DNA of 64,000 bases from Fluviicola sp. (lineage in GTDB: Bacteria; Bacteroidota; Bacteroidia; Flavobacteriales_D; Crocinitomicaceae). The notes beneath the pieces were generated by a model. It made no database searches. It worked only from the letters and a program-made list of their open reading frames with translations, and had not been told where the DNA came from. The stretch spans positions 62,001 to 126,000 of the forward strand of contig NVXU02000023.1 of the NCBI GenBank assembly GCA_002734065.2, read 5' to 3'. Both the position numbers and the translations under genes were made by a program. Positions 201 through 47,999 of this stretch are shown here, piece by piece (position 1 is the stretch's first letter; every line of letters begins with the position of its first letter).

Positions 201-319
201 AAGTCCTCCCCCTAGCCCCCTCCAAAGGGGGAAGAAGCAGATAAGTGAAGTTGGCGTTATAATTTCGATCTTATTTTGAGAGTGGGTTTCCCCTTTGGAG
301 GGGGCTAGGGGGAGGACTT
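201..319. repeat. 30-bp perfect inverted repeat, C/G-rich REP-like element
   Basis: The arm at 201-230 (AAGTCCTCCCCCTAGCCCCC followed by TCCAAAGGGG) is the exact reverse complement of 290-319, with a 59-bp spacer. A diverged single arm occurs at 14203-14234. The G+C content is far above the surrounding DNA. It fits a REP-like dispersed palindrome, and it sits between the phosphatase gene and hutU, where it could also act as a terminator. Confidence 0.8.
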
Positions 320-422
320 GTGATTTGATCAAAAAAGAGAAATCAAATACATTTACTTTAAAAAACCATACCAATCGAGCCATTTTTTCTTTCTACCTTT
401 ACGCTCAAATTAATGTGTAATT

Positions 423-2426
423 ATGAGTTCGTTTAAAGAGCAAATCCTTGAAGGTGTCCCGGCATCAATTCCAGCACTTAAAAAGAAAGAAGAAGGTATC
501 AACCATGCCCCAATTCGCAAGCAAATTCTTTCCAAAGAAGAAAGAAAACTAGCCCTTAAAAATGCTTTGAGGTACTTTCCAAAAAGCCAGCATCAAGAAC
601 TAGCAAAGGAATTTTTGAATGAACTAGACACACTAGGACGTATTTATATGCATAGATATAGACCTGACTATCAAATGACTGCTAGACCCATCAGTGATTA
701 TCCCGGAAAGTGCGAACAAGCAAAGGCCATCATGTTGATGATTCAAAACAACTTGGATTATGCCGTAGCGCAGCATCCTCACGAACTGATCACCTACGGT
801 GGAAACGGTGCTGTTTTCCAGAATTGGATTCAATACCGATTGACGATGAAATACTTGGCTGAAATGTCAGACGAACAGACTTTAGTCATGTATTCTGGTC
901 ACCCAATGGGACTTTTTCCTTCTCACAAAGATGCACCGAGAGTTGTGGTTACCAATGGCATGATGATTCCGAATTATTCTCAACCCGATGATTGGGAGAA
1001 ATTCAACGCGTTGGGCGTTACGCAATACGGACAAATGACCGCCGGTTCTTACATGTACATCGGGCCGCAAGGAATTGTACACGGAACAACCATCACTGTT
1101 CTCAATGCAGGGAGAATGATTTCCAAAAATGGCGAAGGCTTGGAAGGTAAATTATTCTTAACCGCAGGACTTGGAGGCATGTCTGGCGCACAGCCAAAAG
1201 CAGCAAATATTGCAGGTTGCGTTTCTGTGACGGCAGAAGTCAATGCAAAAGCGGTGCGAACACGCCATTCGCAAGGTTGGGTAGATGAAGTGATTGACAA
1301 TGTGGAAGAATTATGCGTTCGTGTTCGTCGTGCGAAAGAAAACAAAGAAATTGTGTCCATTGCTTTTGAAGGAAACATCGTGGATGTCTGGGAAGCATTC
1401 GACAAGAACGATATTTACGTTGATTTAGGTTCTGACCAAACGTCTTTGCACAATCCTTGGGCGGGTGGTTATTATCCAGTCGATATGACTTTGGAAGCAT
1501 CTAACGACATGATGGCAAACAATCCTGAAGAATTCAAAAAGCGCGTGCAAGCCACCTTGGTTCGCCATGCAGATTCTGTCAATAAACACACGGCAAAAGG
1601 CACTTATTTCTTCGATTATGGCAACGCATTCTTACTGGAAGCATCACGTGCCGGAGCAGATATTATGGCAGAGAATGGCATTGATTTCAAATACCCATCT
1701 TATGTGCAAGACATCATGGGACCGATGTGTTTCGATTACGGTTTTGGACCATTTAGATGGGTTTGCGCCTCTGGAAAACCAGAAGATTTGCAAAAAACCG
1801 ACACCATTGCTTGTGCTGTTTTGGAGAAAATGAAAGAAACAAGTCCTGCTGAAATACAACAGCAAATGGCTGATAACATTCAGTGGATTAAAGGGGCACA
1901 AGAGAATAAATTAGTCGTTGGTTCGCAAGCAAGAATTCTCTATGCAGATGCAGAAGGGAGAATGAGAATTGCGCAAGCATTCAACGATGCCATTGCCAGT
2001 GGCGAAATTGGACCTGTTGTTTTAGGTCGTGACCACCACGATGTCTCTGGGACAGATTCGCCCTACAGAGAAACTTCCAATATTTATGACGGTTCTCGTT
2101 TTACGGCTGACATGGCGATTCAAAATGTCATCGGCGACAGTTTTCGAGGGGCAACTTGGGTTTCCATTCACAATGGTGGCGGCGTAGGTTGGGGAGAAGT
2201 CATTAATGGCGGTTTTGGAATGCTCCTCGACGGTTCTTCCGATGCAGAAAGAAGACTAAAATCAATGCTGCACTGGGACGTCAATAATGGAATTTCTCGC
2301 AGAAGCTGGGCCAGAAACGAAGGCGCCATGTACGCGATTAAAAGAGCCATGGAAATAGAACCAAATTTGAAAGTGACGGTGCCGGAAGTTGTGGAGGAAG
2401 ATGTGATTGAGGGGCTGTTTGGGTAG
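423..2426 (+). CDS. hutU: urocanate hydratase (urocanase)
   Basis: Second step of histidine degradation: converts urocanate to 4-imidazolone-5-propionate with tightly bound NAD+, in the cytosol. The 667-residue protein is the long form found in Bacteroidota and some other bacteria (Proteobacterial enzymes are about 555). Visible family features are YGGNGAVFQNW (about 125-135), the NAD-binding glycine segment TAGLGGMSGAQ (about 247-257) and the active-site region GFGPFRWVC (about 440-448). No other hut gene is in the window, so hutU is separated from hutH/hutI here. Its 3' tip is the sequence repeated downstream at 3655-3758 and 8216-8239. Confidence 0.97.
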   Translation: MSSFKEQILEGVPASIPALKKKEEGINHAPIRKQILSKEERKLALKNALRYFPKSQHQELAKEFLNELDTLGRIYMHRYRPDYQMTARPISDYPGKCEQAKAIMLMIQNNLDYAVAQHPHELITYGGNGAVFQNWIQYRLTMKYLAEMSDEQTLVMYSGHPMGLFPSHKDAPRVVVTNGMMIPNYSQPDDWEKFNALGVTQYGQMTAGSYMYIGPQGIVHGTTITVLNAGRMISKNGEGLEGKLFLTAGLGGMSGAQPKAANIAGCVSVTAEVNAKAVRTRHSQGWVDEVIDNVEELCVRVRRAKENKEIVSIAFEGNIVDVWEAFDKNDIYVDLGSDQTSLHNPWAGGYYPVDMTLEASNDMMANNPEEFKKRVQATLVRHADSVNKHTAKGTYFFDYGNAFLLEASRAGADIMAENGIDFKYPSYVQDIMGPMCFDYGFGPFRWVCASGKPEDLQKTDTIACAVLEKMKETSPAEIQQQMADNIQWIKGAQENKLVVGSQARILYADAEGRMRIAQAFNDAIASGEIGPVVLGRDHHDVSGTDSPYRETSNIYDGSRFTADMAIQNVIGDSFRGATWVSIHNGGGVGWGEVINGGFGMLLDGSSDAERRLKSMLHWDVNNGISRRSWARNEGAMYAIKRAMEIEPNLKVTVPEVVEEDVIEGLFG

Positions 2427-2478
2427 AATTTTGTATATTTAGGGTAGTTAACCGTTTAATGATGTTTGTTCGGTTATT
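2406..2478 (+). repeat. hutU-tip leader repeat, copy A (native hutU end)
   Basis: This copy covers the last hutU codons, the stop, and a leader containing TATATTTA (2434-2441), resembling a Bacteroidota -7 box, then the inverted repeat TAACCG/CGGTTA around a 14-nt loop. Related copies start near 3744, 7284 and 8216, each just ahead of an accessory gene block. Function as promoter plus 5' leader for the lipoprotein gene at 2518 is an inference. Confidence 0.8.
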
Positions 2479-2517
2479 GAGTGTAATAAAGAATTAGATA
2501 ATCCATCAATAAAGACA

Positions 2518-3609
2518 ATGGCACAACCTTTTTATATTCTTGTATTGATTTTAGGTATTTCAAGCTGTAGTAGCCCTGAGACTAATGAAAATTTAGATAC
2601 TAACCCTGATAATGAGCCTAATATTTCCGTTACAATACAAACCAATTTTTTGAAAAGTGGTGCTCATGATATAACCTATTTTTCATTCACAAAGAATGTA
2701 GAAGGCTCGTTCTCTTCCTTTATCTATTCGAGGGATTCTTCGCTTACTTCAGAATCTATTATGTGGAGAACCTCACTCAGTCCAAAATCTTTAGAGTATT
2801 ATCCTTTTACTTTGACCGCACAAATCAATAGCTCAAACGACACATTGTTTTTAAATGAAGCCGAGCAGAAAGAACACGGATTCATAGGTCAATACAAATA
2901 CATATTAAAAGATTCATTTGATCTTAAACTGGAAAACGACACATTCATAATATACAGCTACTCTAGGATTGACGAAAATATACGATGGGATGAAACCTTA
3001 TATTTTTCGAACGAGTATGGATTGCTTTTTACTCACTATAACTACTTTCAAAACAATAAAGAAACAATACAGCATGGCAATATTGAAGTAAATCAATTAA
3101 GGGAATTAATCTCTCAATTAAAAACTAACCATAAAAAAGGACTAGGAGCTGATGCTAATTACTCCGACTCAATTGTAGATAGTTTGATCTATGACTTTAA
3201 TAGCAATGGAATTCCAGACCAAATTACAATTTATGGAGATAACCATATTCCATTTGGTGAGGGACCGGAATCCGCTAGAACCATGGTTCTAGAAATAGAC
3301 GGAAAGCAATTATGGGAAAAGGATTCTATTGTATTGTGTACACAGTGTGGCGGTGCATATGGAGACCCTTTTGCTCAGATACTTTTCGAAAATGACACGC
3401 TTAAGATGTATCACTATGGTGGCAGTGGGTGGAGATGGGGATTCGATCAGTTTTTTATTTTTGAAAAAAACTTAGTCAAATTTAAACTTGTCCTCGAAAG
3501 GAAGTTTACTTTTCATTCTGGAGACCCCGAAGAGACTTATGAAGAAAGAATGACTTCAATCGATAAGCTTGAAGGTGTATATTTAAGTGAAATCAATAAT
3601 TATCATTGA
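2518..3609 (+). CDS. hypothetical lipoprotein
   Basis: 363 residues with a lipoprotein signal: a short hydrophobic stretch then ISSC, so Cys17 would be the lipidated residue. The mature protein starts with a low-complexity Asn/Asp/Glu segment typical of surface linkers. Near residue 226 a DFNSNGIPDQ stretch resembles the Ca-binding loops of VCBS/FG-GAP-type repeats, but there is one copy only. No family recognised. It is the only gene between leader copies A and B, so it looks like an independently acquired single-gene block. Confidence 0.7.
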   Translation: MAQPFYILVLILGISSCSSPETNENLDTNPDNEPNISVTIQTNFLKSGAHDITYFSFTKNVEGSFSSFIYSRDSSLTSESIMWRTSLSPKSLEYYPFTLTAQINSSNDTLFLNEAEQKEHGFIGQYKYILKDSFDLKLENDTFIIYSYSRIDENIRWDETLYFSNEYGLLFTHYNYFQNNKETIQHGNIEVNQLRELISQLKTNHKKGLGADANYSDSIVDSLIYDFNSNGIPDQITIYGDNHIPFGEGPESARTMVLEIDGKQLWEKDSIVLCTQCGGAYGDPFAQILFENDTLKMYHYGGSGWRWGFDQFFIFEKNLVKFKLVLERKFTFHSGDPEETYEERMTSIDKLEGVYLSEINNYH

Positions 3610-3654
3610 TACGTATATCTATATCCCTCCGCTGAACTGAATTTACAACCCCGC

Positions 3655-3758
3655 GCGCCATGTACGCAATTAAAAGAGCCATGGAAATAGAACCTAATTT
3701 GAAAGTGACGGTGCCAGAAGTTGTGGAGGAAGATGTGATTGAGGGATTGTTTGGGTAG
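3655..3758 (+). pseudogene. duplicated hutU 3' end (34 codons plus stop)
   Basis: Aligns without gaps to hutU 2323-2426 at a constant offset of 1332. There are only five differences in 104 bp, and all five are synonymous (GCG/GCA, CCA/CCT, CCG/CCA, GGG/GGA, CTG/TTG). It has no start and no upstream hutU, so it is not a gene. The lack of amino-acid changes means this fragment was evolving as part of a working urocanase until recently, for example as a donor allele or a displaced original 3' end. Confidence 0.92.
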
Positions 3759-3822
3759 AATTTTGTATATTTAGGGGACTAATCGTTTAATGGAATATAT
3801 TCGGTCGTTATATGCAAGCTGA
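3744..3822 (+). repeat. hutU-tip leader repeat, copy B
   Basis: Continues from the hutU fragment: TTTGGGTAG, then TATATTTA (3766-3773), AGGGGA, an AATCG/CGGTC imperfect hairpin around TTTAATGGAATATATT, and a terminal CGTTATATGCAAGC (3807-3820). The terminal motif recurs in a related form at the second array (28262-28275 on the opposite strand). Confidence 0.8.
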
Positions 3823-3893
3823 AAAAACATTGATGAATTATAACAAGTTGACCTTCAAAAAAGCTTTATGAGAAACATTATTTTATTGAACTA

Positions 3894-4394
3894 ATGGAGT
3901 CAAAATTCAAATATTTGGTTGTTACGGCATCAATAATATCCCTTGTTCTTTTGTCAATTATATATCTTGCATTTTCGATTGGATACATTTATTTCGAAGA
4001 TTTTGCACCCTTACCAATCACCGTCCTTATTGGTGTTGGTTTCCCATTAATATTCTTTTATCTTCTGAGAGAAATAAGAACTAAGATTTTTCGATTAACA
4101 ATTGAAAAAAACCAAATATGGATTAAACCAATCTTACATTTAAAAAAGAACTATTCAATAGAATTAAATGATAACATTCGTATTCATCAAACACACATAG
4201 ATGTCGAAGCATATCCATATGTCTGTTGTGTCCTCATAATTTATGATAATGATCAAATTGTATTGAGAATAAAGGAAGTTTATTATGAAAATTTTGAAGA
4301 AATAAAACAACGATTGATTCAAATTCAAGGAGAAATTGAATATCAAAAGACGAACTCTAACGAACGATTGAAGACCCCAACAAGCTCACAATAA
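3894..4394 (+). CDS. hypothetical membrane protein
   Basis: 166 residues. Two hydrophobic helices (about 8-30 and 38-60) are followed by a soluble, strand-rich domain with alternating charged and hydrophobic residues (LTIEKNQIWIKP..., IRIHQTHIDVEAYP). This two-helix plus C-terminal beta layout resembles small bacterial membrane proteins with a PH-like domain, but no diagnostic motif is visible. It lies directly after leader copy B and is strongly A+T-rich, like the other cargo genes. Confidence 0.65.
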   Translation: MESKFKYLVVTASIISLVLLSIIYLAFSIGYIYFEDFAPLPITVLIGVGFPLIFFYLLREIRTKIFRLTIEKNQIWIKPILHLKKNYSIELNDNIRIHQTHIDVEAYPYVCCVLIIYDNDQIVLRIKEVYYENFEEIKQRLIQIQGEIEYQKTNSNERLKTPTSSQ

Positions 4395-4421
4395 GAGCAC
4401 CTCATCAATACAGGCCTACAA

Positions 4422-4443
4422 GTGTAAACAAATCTGTTTACAC
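4422..4443. promoter_or_regulatory. palindromic operator-like site GTGTAAACA-N4-TGTTTACAC
   Basis: Perfect 9-bp inverted repeat (4422-4430 and 4435-4443) about 120 bp ahead of the gene at 4564. The flanking sequence aligns with the operator-like region before the HTH gene at 7891: both have TAAACAA, TCTGTTTA, then CAA and TTGTTTAT at the same spacing. Binding by the HTH protein at 7891 is an inference. Confidence 0.6.
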
Positions 4444-4563
4444 AAGGTTGTTTATTCTCTTTCGTAACACATTCACCATTTCACATTAAAATGTGATTTA
4501 TATCATGCTTAGACGTATAAAATTTATCCAACTTTGTCGTTTATATTCAAGAATTTGAAACTC

Positions 4564-6390
4564 ATGAAAAACGAACATTCATTCCACATACCAGTAATGG
4601 GAATAGGATTTACTGTTGACACAGCACTAAAAGTAGCTCACCTTGGCATCAACTCTGTGCTGTCACTTATCGGAGATAAACTGCATGAAAAATTACGAAA
4701 ATATTACTGCGAAAAATACGGACTCGCGTATGAAGAAATTACAGACAAAATAGACGACTACAAAGCAAAAAGGACAACGGCCTATTTGAATCTTTTGGAT
4801 GATTTAACGGCGAAAAAATTTGAGAGTTATAAAAATTCAACCGCAGAATACAAGACTGAAATTGAAGCATGCATTGATTTATTGCCAAATAGTGCACAAT
4901 TGAAAAAGGAATTCCGTCGGCTGATGGAAGATTCTTCTAGTAGTGACCAATGTAAAAAATGGGTAGAAGAAAATCTACAACTCGGTAGCATCGATGTGAA
5001 TATTATGACCAAGCTAGATAGAGAAAACTTTGTGAAAGGGGAGAAATTGCCTCCAGAACACAACGATGGGCATGTCGCAATGCGCGCCTATGCAAACAGC
5101 ACTCTCGATTCTTCGCTTGTGCTTTCAGCAGGGTTAAATCCTAGATTGTTTACCTATATGGAGCAGTTCGAGGACTTCTACCCGGATTCAAATGGGTACA
5201 TTAAAAAGAAAATCATTTTAAAAGTGAGTGACTATCGATCGGCGCTCGTGCAAGGAAAATTCTTAGCAAAAAAAGGATTGTGGATCTCTGAGTACAGAGT
5301 CGAATCAGGACTAAACTGCGGAGGACACGCATTCGCAACCGATGGTTTTTTAATGGGGCCAATTCTATCAGAATTTAAAAACAACAAAAAAGAGCTTTTT
5401 GATTCTGTTTTTGAGGTGTTGAAGACCGCTTTAGACGCTAAAAATAAGGCTGTATTCGAAGAGTTATTGCCCTTTAAATTTACTGCACAAGGAGGAGTTG
5501 GCACGTCAGAAGAACATCAATTTTTGCTCGATGAGTATCAATTAGACTCCGTTGGGTGGGGAAGCCCTTTTCTTTTAGTTCCCGAAGCAGTCAATGTAGA
5601 TGACGAAACGATAACTAGGTTGATTGAAGCGAAAGAAGAAGATTTCTATCTGAGTAGAATATCACCACTTGGTGTTCCGTTCAACAGCCTTAGAGATACT
5701 TCCAAAGAAAGAGAAAGGAAAGAAAAAATTGCCAAAGGAAAACCAGGGAGCCCTTGTATAGAGGGAAGCTTGGCTTTGTTTAACAAAGAATTTACAGACG
5801 ACCCTATTTGTACAGCTTCTCGTCAATATCAAAAGCTGAAAATTGAAGAACTGAAAAAAGATAACCTATCGGTTGAGGAATATCAAGAGAAATATGAGAA
5901 AATTGTCGAAAAAACATGTCTTTGCACGGGTCTCGTGAATCCAGTTTTAATTGTGAACGAGCTCAAAACACCTACTGGAAATGGAGGTGTGTCAATCTGT
6001 CCAGGTCCAAACATGTTTTATTTCAAAAAAGTAATGACGATGAGTGAAATTACCAGCCATATTTACGGCAAAAAAAGCATTCCTTTTTCAGTAGAACGTC
6101 CTCACATGTTTGTCAAAGAACTATATGCTTACATTAAATATTTAAAGGGTTCTATAGAAGATACCAGAAAATCAGTGAACAAGAAAGGAAAAAACCGTCT
6201 GCTTAAATTTTCTGAAAATCTATCGAGCGGAATCGAGTATTATCAGTCACTTTTTAATGCCAACTTGAAGACCTTTTATGATACAAAAGCTGTTATTTTA
6301 GCTGATTTACAAGCAAGCATTGAAAAGTTGAATACAATGCACCAAGAAATTGAGGCATTGTCCATAGAACTACCCATTCAAAAAATCTAA
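4564..6390 (+). CDS. conserved protein, probable TIM-barrel (FMN-type) domain with Cys-rich C-terminal half
   Basis: 608 residues from ATG 4564; an in-frame ATG 30 bp upstream is less likely because the conserved-looking part begins HIPVMGIGFTVDT. QGGVGTSEEH (about 309-318) and DSVGWGSPFLLVPEA (about 327-341) look like the phosphate-binding end of an FMN-dependent TIM barrel. Five cysteines follow in the second half (about 398, 416, 452, 454, 479), enough for a metal or Fe-S site. The tail is a long helical region. Exact function unknown. It is followed after 29 bp by a PlsC-type acyltransferase, so the two probably act together, possibly in lipid chemistry. Confidence 0.6.
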   Translation: MKNEHSFHIPVMGIGFTVDTALKVAHLGINSVLSLIGDKLHEKLRKYYCEKYGLAYEEITDKIDDYKAKRTTAYLNLLDDLTAKKFESYKNSTAEYKTEIEACIDLLPNSAQLKKEFRRLMEDSSSSDQCKKWVEENLQLGSIDVNIMTKLDRENFVKGEKLPPEHNDGHVAMRAYANSTLDSSLVLSAGLNPRLFTYMEQFEDFYPDSNGYIKKKIILKVSDYRSALVQGKFLAKKGLWISEYRVESGLNCGGHAFATDGFLMGPILSEFKNNKKELFDSVFEVLKTALDAKNKAVFEELLPFKFTAQGGVGTSEEHQFLLDEYQLDSVGWGSPFLLVPEAVNVDDETITRLIEAKEEDFYLSRISPLGVPFNSLRDTSKERERKEKIAKGKPGSPCIEGSLALFNKEFTDDPICTASRQYQKLKIEELKKDNLSVEEYQEKYEKIVEKTCLCTGLVNPVLIVNELKTPTGNGGVSICPGPNMFYFKKVMTMSEITSHIYGKKSIPFSVERPHMFVKELYAYIKYLKGSIEDTRKSVNKKGKNRLLKFSENLSSGIEYYQSLFNANLKTFYDTKAVILADLQASIEKLNTMHQEIEALSIELPIQKI

Positions 6391-6419
6391 TTCTACGCAC
6401 TAAAAAACGATTTGCCTTT

Positions 6420-7196
6420 ATGAAAGTTGTATTAAGTTTCTTCTCATTTGTTCTATCCAGGAGGTATAAAATAAAGGTAAAAGGGGAGCATCTTTTGCAT
6501 GAATCTGGGGCGAAATTACTTCTGCAGAATCATCAATCTCATATTGACCCACAATTGTTGGGCGTATTTGTTGCTCAACGAAGCGGCTTGGTTCCCGTTA
6601 TTTCGGAGAAATTTTTACGAATACCGGTCATCGGAGCTGTTTTGAGGTCACATAACGCCGTTTCGGTGAGTGATTTGAAGCATGGCAATCGGGATCCGAA
6701 TGTTCTCAAAAACATGATTTCAAAAATAATGGAGGCACTAGAAAAAGGAAAAAGTGTGCTCATTGCTCCTTCGGGGAATATCGCTCAAGGACCTGTTGAA
6801 CGAATTAAAAATAAGCAGAGTGCGCATGCATTGGTTTCCAACTTGCCAGATGGCGTTAAGGTCATTGGAGTAAGGGTGAATGGACTATGGGGAAGCATGT
6901 GGTCCGTTGCATGGATGGGTAAAAAGCCAGATTTTTTGAAGACCTTTCTCAAAGGTATTTTTTACATTCTCGCCAATTTGATCTTTTTCATGCCAAAGCG
7001 AGAGATTACTTTTGAGTTTGTAGATATTACGGAAGAAGCAAAATTACAGTCCAAGTCAGAACGGAAGGTTTTTAATCATTATTTGGAAGAATTTTACAAT
7101 ATTAATGGTCCAGAAGAGGTGACTTATCTCAAGCACTTCTTCTACGCACCAAAAATAAAAAGAACTTACCCCGCTAATTTAGTGAAGGACAAATAA
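6420..7196 (+). CDS. 1-acyl-glycerol-3-phosphate acyltransferase-like (PlsC family)
   Basis: 258 residues. The acyltransferase block I motif H-x4-D is NHQSHIDPQ (His38, Asp43). A later PSGNIAQGP (117-125) takes the place of the usual PEGT-type block III. A hydrophobic segment near 178-195 would anchor it in the inner membrane. The family transfers acyl groups from ACP or CoA to lysophospholipids or related acceptors. The unusual block III and the partner gene at 4564 suggest a specialised acceptor rather than routine phospholipid synthesis. Part of the block between leader copies B and C. Confidence 0.8.
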   Translation: MKVVLSFFSFVLSRRYKIKVKGEHLLHESGAKLLLQNHQSHIDPQLLGVFVAQRSGLVPVISEKFLRIPVIGAVLRSHNAVSVSDLKHGNRDPNVLKNMISKIMEALEKGKSVLIAPSGNIAQGPVERIKNKQSAHALVSNLPDGVKVIGVRVNGLWGSMWSVAWMGKKPDFLKTFLKGIFYILANLIFFMPKREITFEFVDITEEAKLQSKSERKVFNHYLEEFYNINGPEEVTYLKHFFYAPKIKRTYPANLVKDK

Positions 7197-7283
7197 CTGT
7201 TTGTTCAATTTAGAAATCATATTCTTCACTTCGTTTAATAGATTCAAACGTTTCTGTAGCTCATTGAAAAAGACCAAAGTAAT

Positions 7284-7350
7284 AGGTTGTTTGAGTAGAA
7301 TTTTATATTTTTAGGGGAATTTAGCCGTTTAGGGTTAAGTATTCGGTTGA
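7284..7350 (+). repeat. hutU-tip leader repeat, copy C (most diverged)
   Basis: Retains TTGTTTGAGTAG (hutU tip, now with a Gly-to-Glu codon change), an A/T-rich TATATTTTTAGGGGA, and the AGCCG/CGGTT hairpin around a 16-nt loop. It precedes the DUF2007-like gene at 7381 by 30 bp. It is less like A, B and D than they are like each other. Confidence 0.7.
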
Positions 7351-7380
7351 TATTCGTTAATACCAACTCAAACCCACTCA

Positions 7381-7806
7381 ATGGAATTAATAACACTTAA
7401 AGTATTTAACACAGCAATTGAAGCCTATATTCTAAAAAACAAACTAGAAGGTGAAGGAATTGTGTGTTATATTTTAGATGAAAACATAGTTACCCTTAAC
7501 CCATTACTGAATTTTGCTGTTGGTGGGGTTAGACTTCAGATAAACAAAGTAGATCTAGATAAAGCTAAAGACATCATAGCTGAAATAGACGATCAACCAT
7601 ACACGAATGATGAAGATGCTATTATTGAATGTCCAAAGTGTAGTTCACATAGCCTTTATTCAGATTTCAAATCAATAAAAGATCCGAAAGGTTTTTTAGC
7701 GATGGTACTTGCTTTCTTGACTACCACTTTTCCGATTTATTCAAAGTCTGTTTATAAATGTAAAGATTGCAATACTGAATTCTCCCTCGCTAAGCTGGAT
7801 TTGTAA
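7381..7806 (+). CDS. DUF2007 domain protein with C-terminal zinc ribbon
   Basis: 141 residues. The N-terminal half (LKVFNTAIEAYILKNKLEGEGI... GGVRLQINKVDLDKAKDII) matches the DUF2007 'putative signal transducing protein' fold, a ferredoxin-like domain common in Bacteroidota. The C-terminal part has CPKC (about 84-87) and CKDC (about 126-129) separated by a hydrophobic stretch, giving a zinc-ribbon-like pair. Role unknown; such proteins are thought to be small regulatory or binding modules. Its last codons form one copy of a 19-bp direct repeat found again at 8163-8181. Confidence 0.75.
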   Translation: MELITLKVFNTAIEAYILKNKLEGEGIVCYILDENIVTLNPLLNFAVGGVRLQINKVDLDKAKDIIAEIDDQPYTNDEDAIIECPKCSSHSLYSDFKSIKDPKGFLAMVLAFLTTTFPIYSKSVYKCKDCNTEFSLAKLDL

Positions 7807-7845
7807 TCCTGCTATTAGCACTGAAGATCATTTTATACAATTCAT

Positions 7846-7885
7846 AAATATAAACAATTCTGTTTAAACAAAATTGTTTATATTT
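7846..7885. promoter_or_regulatory. nested palindromic operator before the HTH gene
   Basis: AAATATAAACAATT (7846-7859) and AATTGTTTATATTT (7872-7885) form a perfect 14-bp inverted repeat. The spacer contains the self-complementary TGTTTAAACA (7861-7870). The site ends 5 bp before the start codon at 7891, a normal place for autoregulation by an antitoxin-type HTH protein. A shortened version is at 4422-4443. Confidence 0.7.
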
Positions 7886-7890
7886 ACATC

Positions 7891-8169
7891 ATGATGCAAT
7901 ATCTATCCATATTAAAGGGAATTCAACCCGGTAAAGTCGTTGAATATGAGCTTTCTAGAAGAAAACTCTCTAAAGGTAGATTTGCCATTTCGATTAACGA
8001 ATATCCCCAGACTTTAGGGGCCATTATTAACGGTCATCGTGGAATGAACACGAAATTGTCATTAAAAATTGAAAAAGAATTTGGATGGGGAGAAGGGTTT
8101 TTAATGACACTGAAGGTGTATTATGACATTCGAAAAGAAAAAGAGCAACAAGGCAAGCAACTTCGCTGA
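7891..8169 (+). CDS. HTH antitoxin-like protein (HigA/AbiEi-partner type), orphan
   Basis: 92 residues starting MMQYLSILKGIQPGKVVEYE. The pattern LKGIxPGxxxxxELxxRxLSKGxFAxSxxEYPQTLxxIxxGxRxMNTxLSLKIE is that of Bacteroidota HTH antitoxins usually encoded just before an AbiEii-like nucleotidyltransferase toxin. Here no toxin follows: the next 190 bp hold a direct repeat and leader copy D. It may be a solitary immunity or regulatory gene, or the remnant of a lost toxin-antitoxin pair. A large palindrome immediately upstream suggests autorepression. Confidence 0.75.
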   Translation: MMQYLSILKGIQPGKVVEYELSRRKLSKGRFAISINEYPQTLGAIINGHRGMNTKLSLKIEKEFGWGEGFLMTLKVYYDIRKEKEQQGKQLR

Positions 8170-8215
8170 GCTGGATTTGTACCACGGCAAAAACATCAAT
8201 TTTAGTTGCTCAATC

Positions 8216-8300
8216 GTTATTGAGGGCTTGTTTGGGTAGAATTTTGTATATTTAGGGGAGCTTAGCCGTTTAATGGAATATATTCGGTTGTTGGCGGGTG
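8216..8300 (+). repeat. hutU-tip leader repeat, copy D
   Basis: Begins with eight codons equal to the hutU end (VIEGLFG stop), with three differences from hutU, all synonymous. Then TATATTTA (8247-8254), AGGGGAG, an AGCCG/CGGTT hairpin around TTTAATGGAATATATT, and TTGTTGGCGG. Copies B and D are nearly identical from the stop codon to the hairpin loop. It precedes the small gene at 8365. Confidence 0.8.
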
Positions 8301-8364: not shown

Positions 8365-8574
8365 ATGGAAAATGACTCAAAAAATAAACAAGAAGTAGAA
8401 ATTAAAGATTTTACAACTGAATATAATGAAGTTATTAACTCTTCTGAACAATCTGTTGTAATCGAAACACAATGGACGAAAGATGGCGACTTTTTCCAAA
8501 AGCTTTCAATGTATGACAATTCCTATGTTCAAGTTGAAACTTTAGGAAGTACTACGTTGATAAAAGCTTTATAA
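8365..8574 (+). CDS. small hypothetical protein upstream of SDH protease
   Basis: 69 residues, acidic N-terminal part and short strands afterwards (SVVIETQWTKDGDFF, YVQVETLGSTTLIKAL). No family recognised. Its stop and the next start are separated by one base, so the two genes are translationally coupled and probably work as a pair, for example as substrate, adaptor or inhibitor of the protease. Confidence 0.65.
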   Translation: MENDSKNKQEVEIKDFTTEYNEVINSSEQSVVIETQWTKDGDFFQKLSMYDNSYVQVETLGSTTLIKAL

Positions 8575-8575
8575 T

Positions 8576-9487
8576 ATGCCAAATTGGAATGAAGTTATTC
8601 TTGAGATACAACAAGAACAAAACAATAACCCTAAATTAAATGCCCTTGACACAGTAAGAAGGAAATACCTAAAATTGGTTTCTGAAATTTCTGGGCGAAA
8701 CACCATAGCATATTACTCTGGTTGGCTTCAAAAGCCACAAGCCGCAGGAACAGCAGTTGGAGATAAAGACAAGTCAGGATTTATGTTAACAATTAATAAG
8801 TTAGACAGAAGTAAAGGGCTTGATTTAATACTACATACTCCAGGAGGTGATATTGCTGCAACAGAATCCCTAGTTGACTACCTTTATTCAATGTACGATA
8901 AAGATATTCGTGTTATTGTCCCTCAAATTTCAATGTCAGCAGGAACTATGATTGCTCTTTCCTCAAAAGAGATTGTAATGGGGAAACATTCTAATTTGGG
9001 CCCTATTGACCCGCAAATGGGCGGTTTAGCCTGCCAAGCCGTTCTAAATGAATTTGAACAAGCGAAAGAGGATATAAAACAAAACCCTCAATCAGCTGCA
9101 CTATGGCAAGTTATCATTAGCAAATATCACCCAACTTTTCTAGGTGCCTGTAAACAGGCTATTGAATGGTCTGAAAAAATGGTGTTTGAATGGCTTGAAA
9201 ACAATATGTGCGCAGGAGACACAGAAAAAGTAAAAAAAATAGTAGGTACATTCTCAAATCACACTGAACAAAAATCTCACGCAAGACATATTTCTAAAAA
9301 AGAATGTAAAACAATAGGTCTAAATATTACTGACTTGGAAGATAATCAAGATTTCCAAGATGCTGTATTAACTACTCATCATGCCTTTATGCACACTTTT
9401 TCAAATACACATTGTGTTAAAATTATTGAAAATCATGATGGAATCGCATATATAGAACAAGCGGTTCAACAATCATCAGTAAAATAA
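8576..9487 (+). CDS. SDH-family Clp-fold serine protease
   Basis: 303 residues of the SDH_protease (ClpP/SppA crotonase-like fold) family. Visible parts: HTPGGD (87-92) forming the oxyanion turn, MSAGTM with predicted nucleophile Ser121, and NLGPIDPQ (140-147), which carries the conserved Asp. No signal peptide, so it is cytosolic or attached through a partner. Members usually cleave membrane or small protein substrates. It is coupled to the small gene at 8365 and lies in the last block of the leader-tagged array. A defence role is possible but not shown. Confidence 0.85.
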   Translation: MPNWNEVILEIQQEQNNNPKLNALDTVRRKYLKLVSEISGRNTIAYYSGWLQKPQAAGTAVGDKDKSGFMLTINKLDRSKGLDLILHTPGGDIAATESLVDYLYSMYDKDIRVIVPQISMSAGTMIALSSKEIVMGKHSNLGPIDPQMGGLACQAVLNEFEQAKEDIKQNPQSAALWQVIISKYHPTFLGACKQAIEWSEKMVFEWLENNMCAGDTEKVKKIVGTFSNHTEQKSHARHISKKECKTIGLNITDLEDNQDFQDAVLTTHHAFMHTFSNTHCVKIIENHDGIAYIEQAVQQSSVK

Positions 9488-26942: not shown

Positions 26943-27668
26943 TCAATTCAAAGTAAAAGTAACTGGAATTGTGATAACACACCTAACAGTTTTACCATTA
27001 TCTATTGCTGGGTTCAACTTGGGCAGTTTTGCATTCCTAACAGCTCTTAGTGCTGCACGATCTAAAAAACGATCTATGCTTCTAATAAGGTGTACATTGG
27101 TAATTGTCCCATCTATTTCAACGACAGCGCCGATAAGGACTTTACCTTGTGAATTCTCTTCAATCGCCTGTTGTGGGTAACGTACTTCTTTGTTTAATAT
27201 GGTGAAGAATGCTAGGGTATCATTAGGGTACGGGACGTTTTCTGGATGTTTAATACAGTTGGTTGTATCTATTACACCATACGCAGCATCTTCCTCTCCC
27301 CAAATTTTTGACAGCATTTTTTCATTAGGTAGAAGTTGAATTACCATTGTGTCTTTATCATGCAGAACAAACATATTGTATAAATCACGCGCAATCTCGT
27401 ATTTCTTCTTTGGTCGGTAATAATGTTTAGATTCATAATTCTCAGCACTAAAAGTAATTTTTTGTTTGTTTTTTAAATTCAAAACTTTAAAGATCCCATC
27501 ACTCGTCTTTGAAATCGAACATTTTTTTGAATCACTTGTTGCTATGGCATTAAGTACAAGTTCACCATTATCTATGTTGACTATCTTAAAATAGTATAAT
27601 GACTGACTAAAACTATTTGAGCAGATAGTCAATAATACTATTATGAGTATATGTTGTGTGATTTTCAT
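26943..27668 (-). CDS. secreted protein with TonB C-terminal domain
   Basis: 241 residues. Signal peptide ends at NSFSQ (about 22); there is no transmembrane anchor. Residues about 160-241 form a TonB_C fold (YPQQAIEENSQGKVLIGAVV, IDGTITNVHLIRSIDRFLDR, ALRAVRNAKLPKLNPAIDNG). TonB_C domains normally reach from the inner membrane to outer-membrane receptors; without a membrane helix this one may be a free periplasmic form, a type common in Bacteroidota. Carries R3 at its 3' end; no copy of the common leader was found upstream. Confidence 0.8.
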   Translation of the reverse strand: MKITQHILIIVLLTICSNSFSQSLYYFKIVNIDNGELVLNAIATSDSKKCSISKTSDGIFKVLNLKNKQKITFSAENYESKHYYRPKKKYEIARDLYNMFVLHDKDTMVIQLLPNEKMLSKIWGEEDAAYGVIDTTNCIKHPENVPYPNDTLAFFTILNKEVRYPQQAIEENSQGKVLIGAVVEIDGTITNVHLIRSIDRFLDRAALRAVRNAKLPKLNPAIDNGKTVRCVITIPVTFTLN

Positions 27669-27738
27669 TGCTACTAACCGTTTGTGTAAGATTTCGTTGC
27701 GTGATTAAGCAACTAATTTAGTAAATAAAAACCAACTT

Positions 27739-27778
27739 GAAAATCCGATAGGATTTTCCTAAGTAAGTCAAAACTTAG
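27739..27778. terminator. paired hairpins after the gene at 27798
   Basis: GAAAATCC-GATA-GGATTTTC (27739-27758, perfect) and CTAAGT-N8-ACTTAG (27759-27778, perfect) are adjacent, 20 bp beyond the minus-strand stop at 27798. No T-run follows, so termination is only one possibility. Confidence 0.45.
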
Positions 27779-27797
27779 CAATGAATTTTTCACTTTG

Positions 27798-28250
27798 TTA
27801 TGTGCTGGCTTTTCTTTCCGTTGCAAAAAATCCGTTATCATTTATTTCGTCAAATAATTCAATTTCAAGTGCGTTATATTTTTCCGAAATTGAATGGATT
27901 AATTCCGCTTTAAATTCCGTTTCATTTATTTGCATTAATTCCATTCCGTCATAACTGACAAAAATCGGTTTGCTTTCTTTTTCGATTGAGAAATGAACCA
28001 AGTCGTAAATCAGTTTTTCTTTTTCCGACTCAATGATATTCAGCAATATATTTTTAAATTCAGATGTCAAAGGAATTATAAAAGTGGATATTTTGCTTTT
28101 ATTAGGAACTTGATTTTCAGAGAATAATTTTCGGAATGATTTTTCAGAGATATGTTCCGAGTAAAATCCGTTAATATTCATTTCCGTTTTATTCGGAGAA
28201 TTAATGATTAATTCCTTTAAAAATTCTATTTGTAATTCTTCTTCTGTCAT
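27798..28250 (-). CDS. hypothetical protein
   Basis: 150 residues from MTEEELQIEFLKELI. A longer frame reaches 28289, but those 13 codons are the leader sequence including CGTTATGTGCAAGC, so the internal ATG at 28250 is chosen. Acidic, no signal or membrane segment. The last codons and stop (GCC AGC ACA TAA) fall within a GTTATGTGCTGGC word similar to the leader motif. Family not recognised. First unit of array 2. Confidence 0.65.
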   Translation of the reverse strand: MTEEELQIEFLKELIINSPNKTEMNINGFYSEHISEKSFRKLFSENQVPNKSKISTFIIPLTSEFKNILLNIIESEKEKLIYDLVHFSIEKESKPIFVSYDGMELMQINETEFKAELIHSISEKYNALEIELFDEINDNGFFATERKAST

Positions 28251-28261
28251 TTTTTGTCCGC

Positions 28262-28353
28262 TTGCACATAACGATAAGAATAATCCCAATCGAGATTACT
28301 CGTCTAATGTTTTCCTCCCAAATATAACAAAGAATCCCCAATCTCTGAATCTT
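28262..28353 (-). repeat. array-2 leader, copy 4, with CGTTATGTGCAAGC motif
   Basis: 28279-28353 matches 24631-24705 (68 of 75 bp). Minus strand order: TATATTTG (28326-28319), GGGAGGAAAACATTAG, hairpin CGAGTAATCTCG (28302-28291), TTGGGATTATT, and CGTTATGTGCAAG (28274-28262), close to the end of leader B at 3807-3820 in the other array. Confidence 0.85.
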
Positions 28354-47375: not shown

Positions 47376-47999
47376 ATGCAAGAACGAACAAAATATCACG
47401 CTTTTTTTGAGAAATTTATCTCAAATGACTTTTTAGAGTATGTCGTTTCAGTGATTCTTGAAAATTCTGTTCGTTTTAAAATTGTTAAACCAAGAAAAAC
47501 AAAATTAGGCGACTTTAGAGCAGGGAGAAAGGGAGAAATGCACATCATTACAATTAATAATAACTTAAACCCGTATTCATTTCTCATTACCACACTGCAT
47601 GAATTTGCTCATTTAATAGCACACAATAAATTTGGACGCAGAATTCAGCCTCATGGAAAAGAATGGCAATCAACTTATACCGATTTAATCCATCCACTCA
47701 TTGAGAGCAAGAAATTACCTGAAGATATTGAGAATGCATTGCTTAATTCTTTGGTGAAAGTAAAAGCATCCTCCTGTTCTGATGTAGAATTGCAAAGAGC
47801 TTTAATGAAATACGACCTTCGTTCTGAAGAAATAACAACACTTGAACAATTGGATAAAAACAGTATTTTTGCACTCAACAATAAGACATTCCAAAAAGGA
47901 AATTTGAGAAGAACTCGATTTCTCTGCAAAGAAACGAACACAAAAAGAGATTATTTAATTCATGCACTTGCAAAAGTGGAAGAAATAAAACGAAAATAG
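47376..47999 (+). CDS. SprT-like zinc protease-family protein
   Basis: 207 residues. Zinc site HEFAH (75-79) in LHEFAHLIAHNKFG, with PHGKEW following (His93 as third ligand), as in the SprT/Spartan family. The C-terminal zinc ribbon of Spartan is not complete: one Cys (FLCKETN) is present. Eukaryotic relatives cleave DNA-protein crosslinks; bacterial roles are unclear. Divergent from mlaE. Confidence 0.85.
   Translation: MQERTKYHAFFEKFISNDFLEYVVSVILENSVRFKIVKPRKTKLGDFRAGRKGEMHIITINNNLNPYSFLITTLHEFAHLIAHNKFGRRIQPHGKEWQSTYTDLIHPLIESKKLPEDIENALLNSLVKVKASSCSDVELQRALMKYDLRSEEITTLEQLDKNSIFALNNKTFQKGNLRRTRFLCKETNTKRDYLIHALAKVEEIKRK

What the first reader, a model, noticed from the sequence alone, without database searches (positions are those of the whole stretch)
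2406..8300. Leader-tagged accessory array built on the hutU 3' end
Four copies of one sequence (hutU tip, stop codon, TATATTTA-type box, hairpin around TTTAATG-A-ATATATT) lie at 2406, 3744, 7284 and 8216, each just before one to three unrelated small genes, all on the plus strand. This is a cassette-like layout: promoter plus leader, then cargo, repeated, at the end of a core metabolic gene. No integrase is in the window. It could be a new kind of integration hotspot or homologous-exchange array.
Basis: partly seen in the sequence, partly recalled or inferred. Interest (0 to 1): 0.88.

Follow-up and report, generated by a model that had tools for sequence, protein, structure and literature searches.

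The report
Dispersed integron-like gene-capture platforms
The repeated leaders after hutU look like promoter-equipped docking sites of a gene-collecting system that behaves like an integron, but whose recombinase lacks the helix thought to be essential and whose docking sites are scattered over the chromosome.

Summary
The four leaders are real (2415-2477, 3655-3809, 7287-7349, 8228-8290). Each has a TAnnTTTA box and, 39-43 nt on, a GTT where cargo begins. A homologous leader follows an FKBP gene in this genome; one copy precedes a cassette identical, for 103 of 103 available nt from GTT, to the one beside a tyrosine-recombinase gene on contig C44. Relatives of that recombinase occur across Flavobacteriales. 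After most of their stop codons lies a palindrome ending in GTT (attI-like), then cassettes whose ends form attC-like hairpins; all 41 folded were more stable on the bottom strand. The recombinase is about 43 residues shorter than VchIntIA where I place the integron-specific I2 helix. Attachment sites also lie far from the integrase: 15 of 16 platforms tested here, and three in a one-contig relative. I read the hutU array as a tandem, partly degraded set of such platforms, extended with hutU tails from another strain. Against this: hutU cargo has no recognisable attC, and leaders 1 and 3 match poorly. The system fails two integron tests (I2, GTTRRRY), so it is integron-like, not filed as an integron. 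No activity has been shown.

The parts
423..2426 (+). hutU (urocanase), host gene whose 3' end precedes leader 1
   Evidence: Pfam Urocanase N, Rossmann and C-terminal domains
2434..2475 (+). Leader 1: TATATTTA box (2434-2441) to GTT (2473-2475); right half-site degenerate
   Evidence: PWM rank 39 of 127,966 positions
2518..3609 (+). Cargo 1: 363-aa protein, lipoprotein-like signal by eye, no Pfam or PADLOC hit
3655..3758 (+). Copied hutU 3' tail with stop codon; five changes beyond the junction base, all synonymous
3766..3809 (+). Leader 2: TATATTTA box (3766-3773), attI-like half-site GAATATATTCGGTC, GTT at 3807, then cassette-type start GTTATATGCAAGC
   Evidence: PWM rank 4; best hit of the attI model in the 64-kb window, 20.5 bits, E 0.067
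3894..7196 (+). Cargo 2: 166-aa protein (3894-4394), 608-aa unknown (4564-6390), acyltransferase (6420-7196)
7287..7348 (+). Leader 3: short hutU tip, TATTTTTA box (7306-7313), degenerate half-site, GTT at 7346
   Evidence: PWM rank 472
7381..8169 (+). Cargo 3: DUF2007/zinc-ribbon protein (7381-7806), 92-aa unknown protein (7891-8169)
8220..8292 (+). Leader 4: hutU tip, TATATTTA box (8247-8254), half-site GAATATATTCGGTT, GTT at 8290, cassette-type start GTTGGCGGGTGATT
   Evidence: PWM rank 2 of 127,966 positions
8365..9487 (+). Cargo 4: 69-aa protein (8365-8574) and ClpP-like SDH-type protease (8576-9487)
28272..28326 (-). Second platform in the window: TATATTTG box (28319-28326), leader, GTT at 28272 (cassette start GTTATGTGCAAGC); its half-site is weak (PWM rank 318)
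27798..28250 (-). Cargo gene of the second platform (first ATG at 28250; listed from a TTG at 28289)
27676..27799 (-). attC of that cassette, R'' GCCAGCACATAAC (2 mismatches); next cassette-type start GTTAGTAGCAATG at 27678
   Evidence: attC model 94.4 bits, E 5e-19; R''

Best explanation
The leaders are landing platforms (a promoter, Pc, plus an attI-like recombination site) of an integron-like cassette system of Flavobacteriales and relatives. A tyrosine recombinase encoded elsewhere (contig C44) inserts circular gene cassettes at the G/TT end of such a site, recombining the cassette's attC as a folded bottom strand; the platform's promoter then expresses the cassette. Platforms are not confined to the integrase: they are dispersed and served in trans. 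At hutU the platform was multiplied in tandem: platform, cargo and a piece of hutU tail from another strain's hutU platform were joined behind the resident one, and the cargo has since lost its attC ends. Shown from sequence: leader family, box spacing, one cassette behind two different sites with the switch at GTT, integrase-attI linkage, attC pairing and strand asymmetry, dispersed sites, a recombinase about 43 residues short where IntI has its specific insert. Inferred: that this recombinase acts on these sites, that folding is used, that the boxes are promoters (the Bacteroidota TAnnTTTG consensus is recalled), and how the hutU tandem arose.
For: (1) The FKBP leader (78% identical to leader 4) in C14 and the attI beside the recombinase gene in C44 are followed by the same cassette, 103 of 103 nt identical from GTT, while the 60 nt before it match at 20. 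(2) A half-site PWM trained on 23 other sites ranks leader 4 second and leader 2 fourth of 127,966 window positions; the FKBP half-sites score above every window position. (3) 16 of 16 own-genome platforms tested, the C44 site included, have TAnnTTT(A/G) upstream, the nearest 39-92 nt before GTT; over 36 orphan platforms of several genomes 21 same-strand vs 6 opposite-strand, shuffled mean 6.6, maximum 15 of 500 shuffles. (4) attI palindrome covaries: 53 double-changed cells vs 18.5 shuffled, 0/500 (the 23 sites were picked by eye). (5) attC: covariation 42 vs 10, 0/500; bottom strand more stable in 41/41 vs 98/205 control windows; mismatch at R' position 11 in 41/41. (6) An attC model built from named public genomes hits 7 of the 10 own platform loci given, E 3e-23 to 0.011. 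(7) Tandem platforms with duplicated upstream flank recur at G040:C148 (BLAST) and G292 (by eye). (8) No IntI above the curated cut-off in the own genome or in 8 genomes behind named loci (a ninth was not held).
Against: The hutU cargo shows no attC: no matching R'' at 1 mismatch or fewer within 7 kb of the four GTTs, and no attC-model hit between 2.4 and 9.5 kb. Leaders 1 and 3 score poorly (ranks 39 and 472), and so does the window's second platform although it has a clear attC (rank 318). The attI covariance model gives only E 0.067 for leader 2. The leaders' palindrome is imperfect and unlike that of the C44 site. G014's hutU cargo starts like a cassette but has neither leader nor R''. FKBP copies and C44 end at contig breaks, so their linkage is inferred. 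The attI model missed G292's own attI, so counts are uneven. By TM-score the recombinase model is nearer IntI4 (0.67) than XerA (0.56), although XerA has the better E-value. No recombination or promoter activity has been measured.
Confidence: 0.64

Rival explanations
1. Homology-driven accumulation: the leader is an expression platform at hutU, but tandem units were added by transformation with other strains' hutU loci (one homologous end, one illegitimate end), without integrase action at the leader.
For: Variable hutU-tail lengths (122 nt, about 22, about 14); all five changes beyond the junction base in the long tail are synonymous; no attC in the array; a tandem platform elsewhere also carries a duplicated flank, 237 alignment columns at 83% including the site in G040:C148.
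Against: Cargo after leaders 2 and 4 begins at GTT with cassette-type starts; the homologous FKBP leader takes cassettes with matching R''.
Confidence: 0.23
2. The leader is a generic promoter or 5' leader repeat with no role in gene gain.
For: It contains a plausible promoter box; leaders 1 and 3 score poorly as attI.
Against: Only 7 places in the genome match it at E <= 0.01, three of them at FKBP contig ends; half-site ranks of leaders 2 and 4; cargo switches exactly at GTT between contexts.
Confidence: 0.07
3. A conventional genomic island: a phage-type integrase uses the hutU 3' end as attB and the repeats are attL/attR copies of tandem islands.
For: 3'-end duplication of the target gene is typical of such islands (recalled); the duplicated hutU tail is in frame with its stop codon.
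Against: No integrase family hit among the array's proteins; the repeats include a downstream box and half-site shared with unrelated loci; tail length differs per copy.
Confidence: 0.05

Closest known systems
Integrons (sedentary chromosomal)
   Same: Integrase gene with adjacent attI, GTT/AAC crossover triplets, cassettes with variable complementary R''/R' ends and covarying L''/L' arms with an unpaired spacer, bottom-strand-biased folding
   Different: Integrase lacks about 43 residues where IntI has its specific insert; attI is a near-perfect palindrome directly 3' of the integrase gene, which points towards the array; R' is not GTTRRRY; many attI-like platforms with their own promoter box lie far from the integrase
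attI-type and deltaattI-type gene cassettes of class 1/2 integrons (PMC12901181, passages read)
   Same: attI-ORF-attI architecture, with an attI-like site in place of attC after the gene, as between the hutU leaders
   Different: hutU units carry a promoter box and a host-gene tail before the site; chromosomal, Bacteroidota; activity unknown
attG sites (insertion of integron cassettes into genomes outside integrons; seen only as mentioned in PMC12901181)
   Same: Cassette insertion at chromosomal sites away from the integrase
   Different: Here many sites share box, palindrome and half-site with the integrase's own attI, so they look like copies rather than chance targets
CALIN (attC clusters without integrase; definition seen in PMC9024848 passages)
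   Same: Cassettes without an adjacent integrase
   Different: Each platform has its own attI-like site and promoter box; the hutU array has no recognisable attC

Membership tests
Integron (system as a whole) | Integrase with the IntI-specific additional domain / I2 helix | tested here: not met
   Against VchIntIA (2a3v) the family profile aligns up to chain residue 179 and again from 241, with only 18 residues between; that I2 lies in this stretch is recalled. TIGR02249 187.7 bits, cut-off 265. No helix at residues 285-300 of the AlphaFold model
Integron (system as a whole) | attI beside the integrase gene | tested here: met
   Palindrome plus GTT directly after the stop codon, by eye, in 11 of 14 genus integrases read and 18 of 20 public loci (L118-L136, L146; three imperfect); a GTT cassette-type start 33-54 nt after the stop in 8 of 8 class genomes read
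Integron (system as a whole) | attC: structure-conserved folded site with AAC/GTT crossover | tested here: met
Integron (system as a whole) | Bottom-strand preference of attC | tested here: met
   Folding energy only: 41 of 41 vs 98 of 205 control windows
Integron (system as a whole) | R' consensus GTTRRRY | tested here: not met
   Position 5 is T in 18, G in 13, C in 10 of 41
Integron (system as a whole) | Pc promoter drives cassettes | tested here: inconclusive
   Box enrichment only
Integron (system as a whole) | Integrase recombines attI x attC | not testable with these tools
   Needs an assay
attI-like platform (hutU leaders) | attI right half-site before GTT | tested here: inconclusive
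   Met by leaders 2 and 4 (ranks 4 and 2), not by 1 and 3 (ranks 39 and 472)
attI-like platform (hutU leaders) | Inverted palindrome as in integrase-adjacent attI | tested here: inconclusive
   Leader 2 E 0.067, leader 4 E 5.5, leaders 1 and 3 no hit up to E 10
CALIN (hutU array) | At least two attC sites | tested here: not met
   No attC found at 2.4-9.5 kb
attG insertion | attG target sequence features | not tested
   Defining paper not read

The most novel reading that the evidence does not exclude
Flavobacteriales and relatives carry a second, I2-independent kind of integron: an Xer/XerA-like recombinase captures cassettes through folded bottom-strand attC sites, solving the strand-choice problem without the I2 helix, and uses a distributed set of promoter-attI platforms, which multiply in tandem, instead of one array.
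Probability: 0.6. Interest if true: 0.93.

Novelty: new variant of a known kind. Interest (0 to 1): 0.85.

Why it matters
The I2 helix is described as necessary for cassette capture, found in no other protein, and the innovation that allowed recombination of folded single strands (PMC7790495; abstract, introduction and one discussion section read). A family of recombinases without it, linked to attI-like and attC-like sites with clear bottom-strand signatures, makes that idea directly testable. Dispersed promoter-attI platforms would mean that one integrase can load genes at many chromosomal positions. IntegronFinder 2 says its earlier survey had only In0 elements in Bacteroidetes and now names one complete integron there (Salinibacter ruber M1) (passage), so a sizeable cassette pool in this phylum may be going uncounted.

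Tried and rejected
Tried and rejected or left open. (1) A plain IntI search with TIGR02249 rings in 14 of 14 control genomes, so only matches over the cut-off were taken as IntI; there were none. (2) Blind pairing of GTT and AAC 11-mers at 2 mismatches gave counts in the range of shuffled sequence for most loci shown, so I used chained cassettes with regular attC length, covariation and strand bias instead. (3) R'/R'' complementarity (6.8 of 8 within a cassette vs 2.5 between) is partly built in, because R'' was chosen by match. (4) Two weak cassettes (score >=3) were dropped from 49; 41 of the remaining 47 had a next start and were folded. (5) The attI model found nothing in the one-contig genome G292, not even its own attI. 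A 17-nt pattern with up to 3 mismatches found 10 places there, but its backward control found 17, so only the four places with 0-1 mismatch were used, read in context. (6) Of 57 attI-model rows in the genus, my stricter palindrome-plus-GTT pattern accepted 10 of 10 loci before a script error and 14 of 26. (7) Distant homologues G195 and G173 show no such site, and my regex found no integrase in G105. (8) A PWM top hit at 47844(-) has no cassette-type start I could see: taken as chance. (9) Defence annotation of the cargo: one marginal hit. (10) In one search minus-strand loci were folded on the wrong strand; only its window rows are used.
Full report
What is there. The region 2.4-9.5 kb holds hutU (423-2426) and, on the same strand, four leader copies with cargo. 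Copy 2 includes a 122-nt repeat of the hutU end (96%); copies 3 and 4 have only about 14 and 22 nt of it (by eye). In the whole genome the leader finds these four and then a second family at three contig ends, C59, C50 and C14. These share a 129-nt repeat (C59 and C14 identical for 129 nt; it also ends C50) behind a gene with FKBP_C and FKBP_N domains. It contains a 78% identical leader and has two different continuations, so that platform too exists in at least two copies.

How the cassette reading arose. After the FKBP leader, C14 continues GTTACCCAACATTC...; exactly the same sequence, from GTT on, follows a perfect palindrome lying directly 3' of a tyrosine-recombinase gene on C44. It is identical for all 103 nt available, while the 60 nt before GTT match at 20. 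So one cassette start occurs behind two different sites, with the switch at GTT. The C59 cassette starts GTTGTAACCA and ends TGGTTACAAC, and the C14 array has further cassettes of this form.

The recombinase and its site. The C44 protein (381 aa) has Phage_integrase and SAM-like domains. Its best NCBIfam model is NF040815, 'site-specific tyrosine recombinase/integron integrase' (224.6 bits, cut-off 220); it scores 187.7 against TIGR02249 (cut-off 265). Against VchIntIA the family profile leaves chain residues 180-240 (61) opposite only 18 residues, so about 43 are missing; that this stretch contains I2 is my recollection. An AlphaFold model (pLDDT 83.6, pTM 0.54) shows no helix at 285-300. Foldseek ranks XerA first by E-value and IntI4 sixth, but IntI4 has the higher TM-score (0.67 vs 0.56). 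Near full-length homologues at >=55% identity occur in 14 of 34 genus genomes. I read 14 of those 15 genes: 11 have a palindrome ending in a GTT cassette-type start directly after the stop codon (by eye; G043, G024 and G007 unclear). The same holds by eye for 18 of 20 public loci, L118-L136 and L146, including Arenibacter, Winogradskyella, Aquimarina, Seonamhaeicola and Aequorivita: L121, L123 and L131 are imperfect, L126 is cut off and L133 lacks it. Loci below about 45% identity mostly lack it. In 247 class genomes, 47 have a homologue at E <= 1e-90 and 11, ours included, at E <= 1e-150; of the 10 others 8 were read: all have a GTT cassette-type start and 7 a chained first cassette. The 23 sites aligned covary strongly, but were picked by eye.

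The attC sites. Eighteen public loci were chained; 14 gave cassettes, 49 in all, 47 kept. Gaps between R'' and the next GTT fall into three classes: 54-55 (4), 115-122 (27) and 174-193 nt (10). In 25 of the 27 middle-class sites the L''/L' arms covary (42 double-changed cells vs 10 shuffled, 0/500; structure derived from the same alignment). Of 41 sites folded, the bottom strand is more stable in 41, against 98 of 205 random windows. R' positions 1-9 show no mismatch to R'' in 41 sites, and position 11 is mismatched in all 41: A.C on top in 34, that is T.G on the bottom strand. These are conserved family features, not 41 independent events. They match what is described for integron attC: no conserved sequence except AAC, a conserved palindrome, bottom-strand bias (PMC4792948, passages).

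Dispersed platforms. The attI model gives 57 rows in 14 of 34 genus genomes at E <= 0.1; four are the same palindrome read on the other strand, leaving 53 places, 8 of them beside the recombinase gene. Some were not confirmed by my stricter pattern (see Tried and rejected). In the own genome I tested 16 platforms: C44, C39, C53, C56, C47, C31, C49, C10, C21, C40, C59, C14 and hutU 1-4; all have a TAnnTTTR box upstream. C39 is identical to C44 for 35 nt upstream of the palindrome, which includes the recombinase gene's last codons, much as the hutU copies carry hutU's. In a one-contig 4.1-Mb relative genome (G292), sites with 0-1 mismatch lie at 0.66, 3.71 and 3.72 Mb, the recombinase at 1.44 Mb; two of the three extra sites have a matching R''. 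Tandem platforms with a duplicated upstream flank recur in G040:C148 (237 columns, 83%) and, by eye, in G292. An attC model from public genomes hits 7 of the 10 own platform loci given (C39 twice; none at C47, C31, C53) and a second platform inside the window at 27676-27799(-), 94.4 bits. That platform has the box and the cassette start but a weak half-site (rank 318).

The hutU array in this light. Leaders 2 and 4 rank fourth and second in the window by a half-site matrix trained without them, 1 and 3 rank 39 and 472. The covariance model gives leader 2 E 0.067, the best in the window, and leader 4 E 5.5. Leader 2's cargo starts GTTATATGCAAGC, leader 4's GTTGGCGGGTGATT, as cassettes do. But no attC was found after any of them. 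The long hutU tail differs from hutU at five sites beyond the junction base, all silent, which fits a tail taken from another strain's working gene better than decay in place, though five sites are few. In G014, the nearest relative available (86% DNA identity in hutU), hutU is followed by another gene with start GTTGTCCACAATT, no leader and no R''. I therefore call the array a tandem, partly degraded platform whose extension may have been homology-driven.

Independent hint. The sequence CGAGTAGACGG, which I recognise as a group II intron 3' end in antisense, interrupts the attC at the same point in C14, C40 and a Gillisia contig; Rfam finds a group II D1-D4 domain about 300 nt from the C40 one. 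That such introns target attC is recalled.

Known or not. Ten searches of the open-access library listed no paper whose title or abstract start describes cassette systems with I2-less integrases or dispersed attI in Bacteroidota; most subscription papers are absent, so this is weak. Passages read: integrons are listed for Bacteroidota (PMC8618304; PMC9668308; PMC2426708, which selected genes by the IntI domain or patch). [quoted passage not shown] PMC8352920 names no Bacteroidota attC model. Two defining integron features are not met, so I file this as integron-like, not as an integron.

Noticed in passing
window 26943-28326 (-): A second platform in the window with a cassette and a strong attC, then a second cassette-type start (GTTAGTAGCAATG) before a 241-aa gene; no clear R'' for the second.
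   Followed up: yes
L058 (C14), L056 9710-9780 (C40), L121 (Gillisia MAG): attC sites interrupted at the same point by what looks like a group II intron 3' end in antisense; in C40 none of the six ORFs of 120 aa or more listed nearby looks like an intron RT by eye (not scanned).
   Followed up: partly
window 7762-7805 and 8138-8181: A second 3'-end duplication (GCT(A/G)AGCTGGATTTGTA) brackets the 92-aa ORF in cargo 3, like a small nested insertion.
   Followed up: no
window 7845-7886 and 4421-4456: A 42-bp near-perfect palindrome of TAAATATAAACAA type before the 92-aa ORF, and a similar AAACAAATCTGTTT hairpin before the 608-aa gene.
   Followed up: no
window 203-320: Inverted pair of CCCCCTAGCCCCCTCCAAAGGGGG-type repeats upstream of hutU.
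   Followed up: no
genus genomes, contigs carrying the recombinase gene: In 12 of the 14 genus loci read, the contig ends within about 70-1300 bases after the recombinase gene, as expected if these sites or cassettes are repeated in the genome.
   Followed up: partly
L056 7711-9707 (C40): C40 platform cargo: a 313-aa and a 350-aa protein of unknown function, no PADLOC hit.
   Followed up: partly
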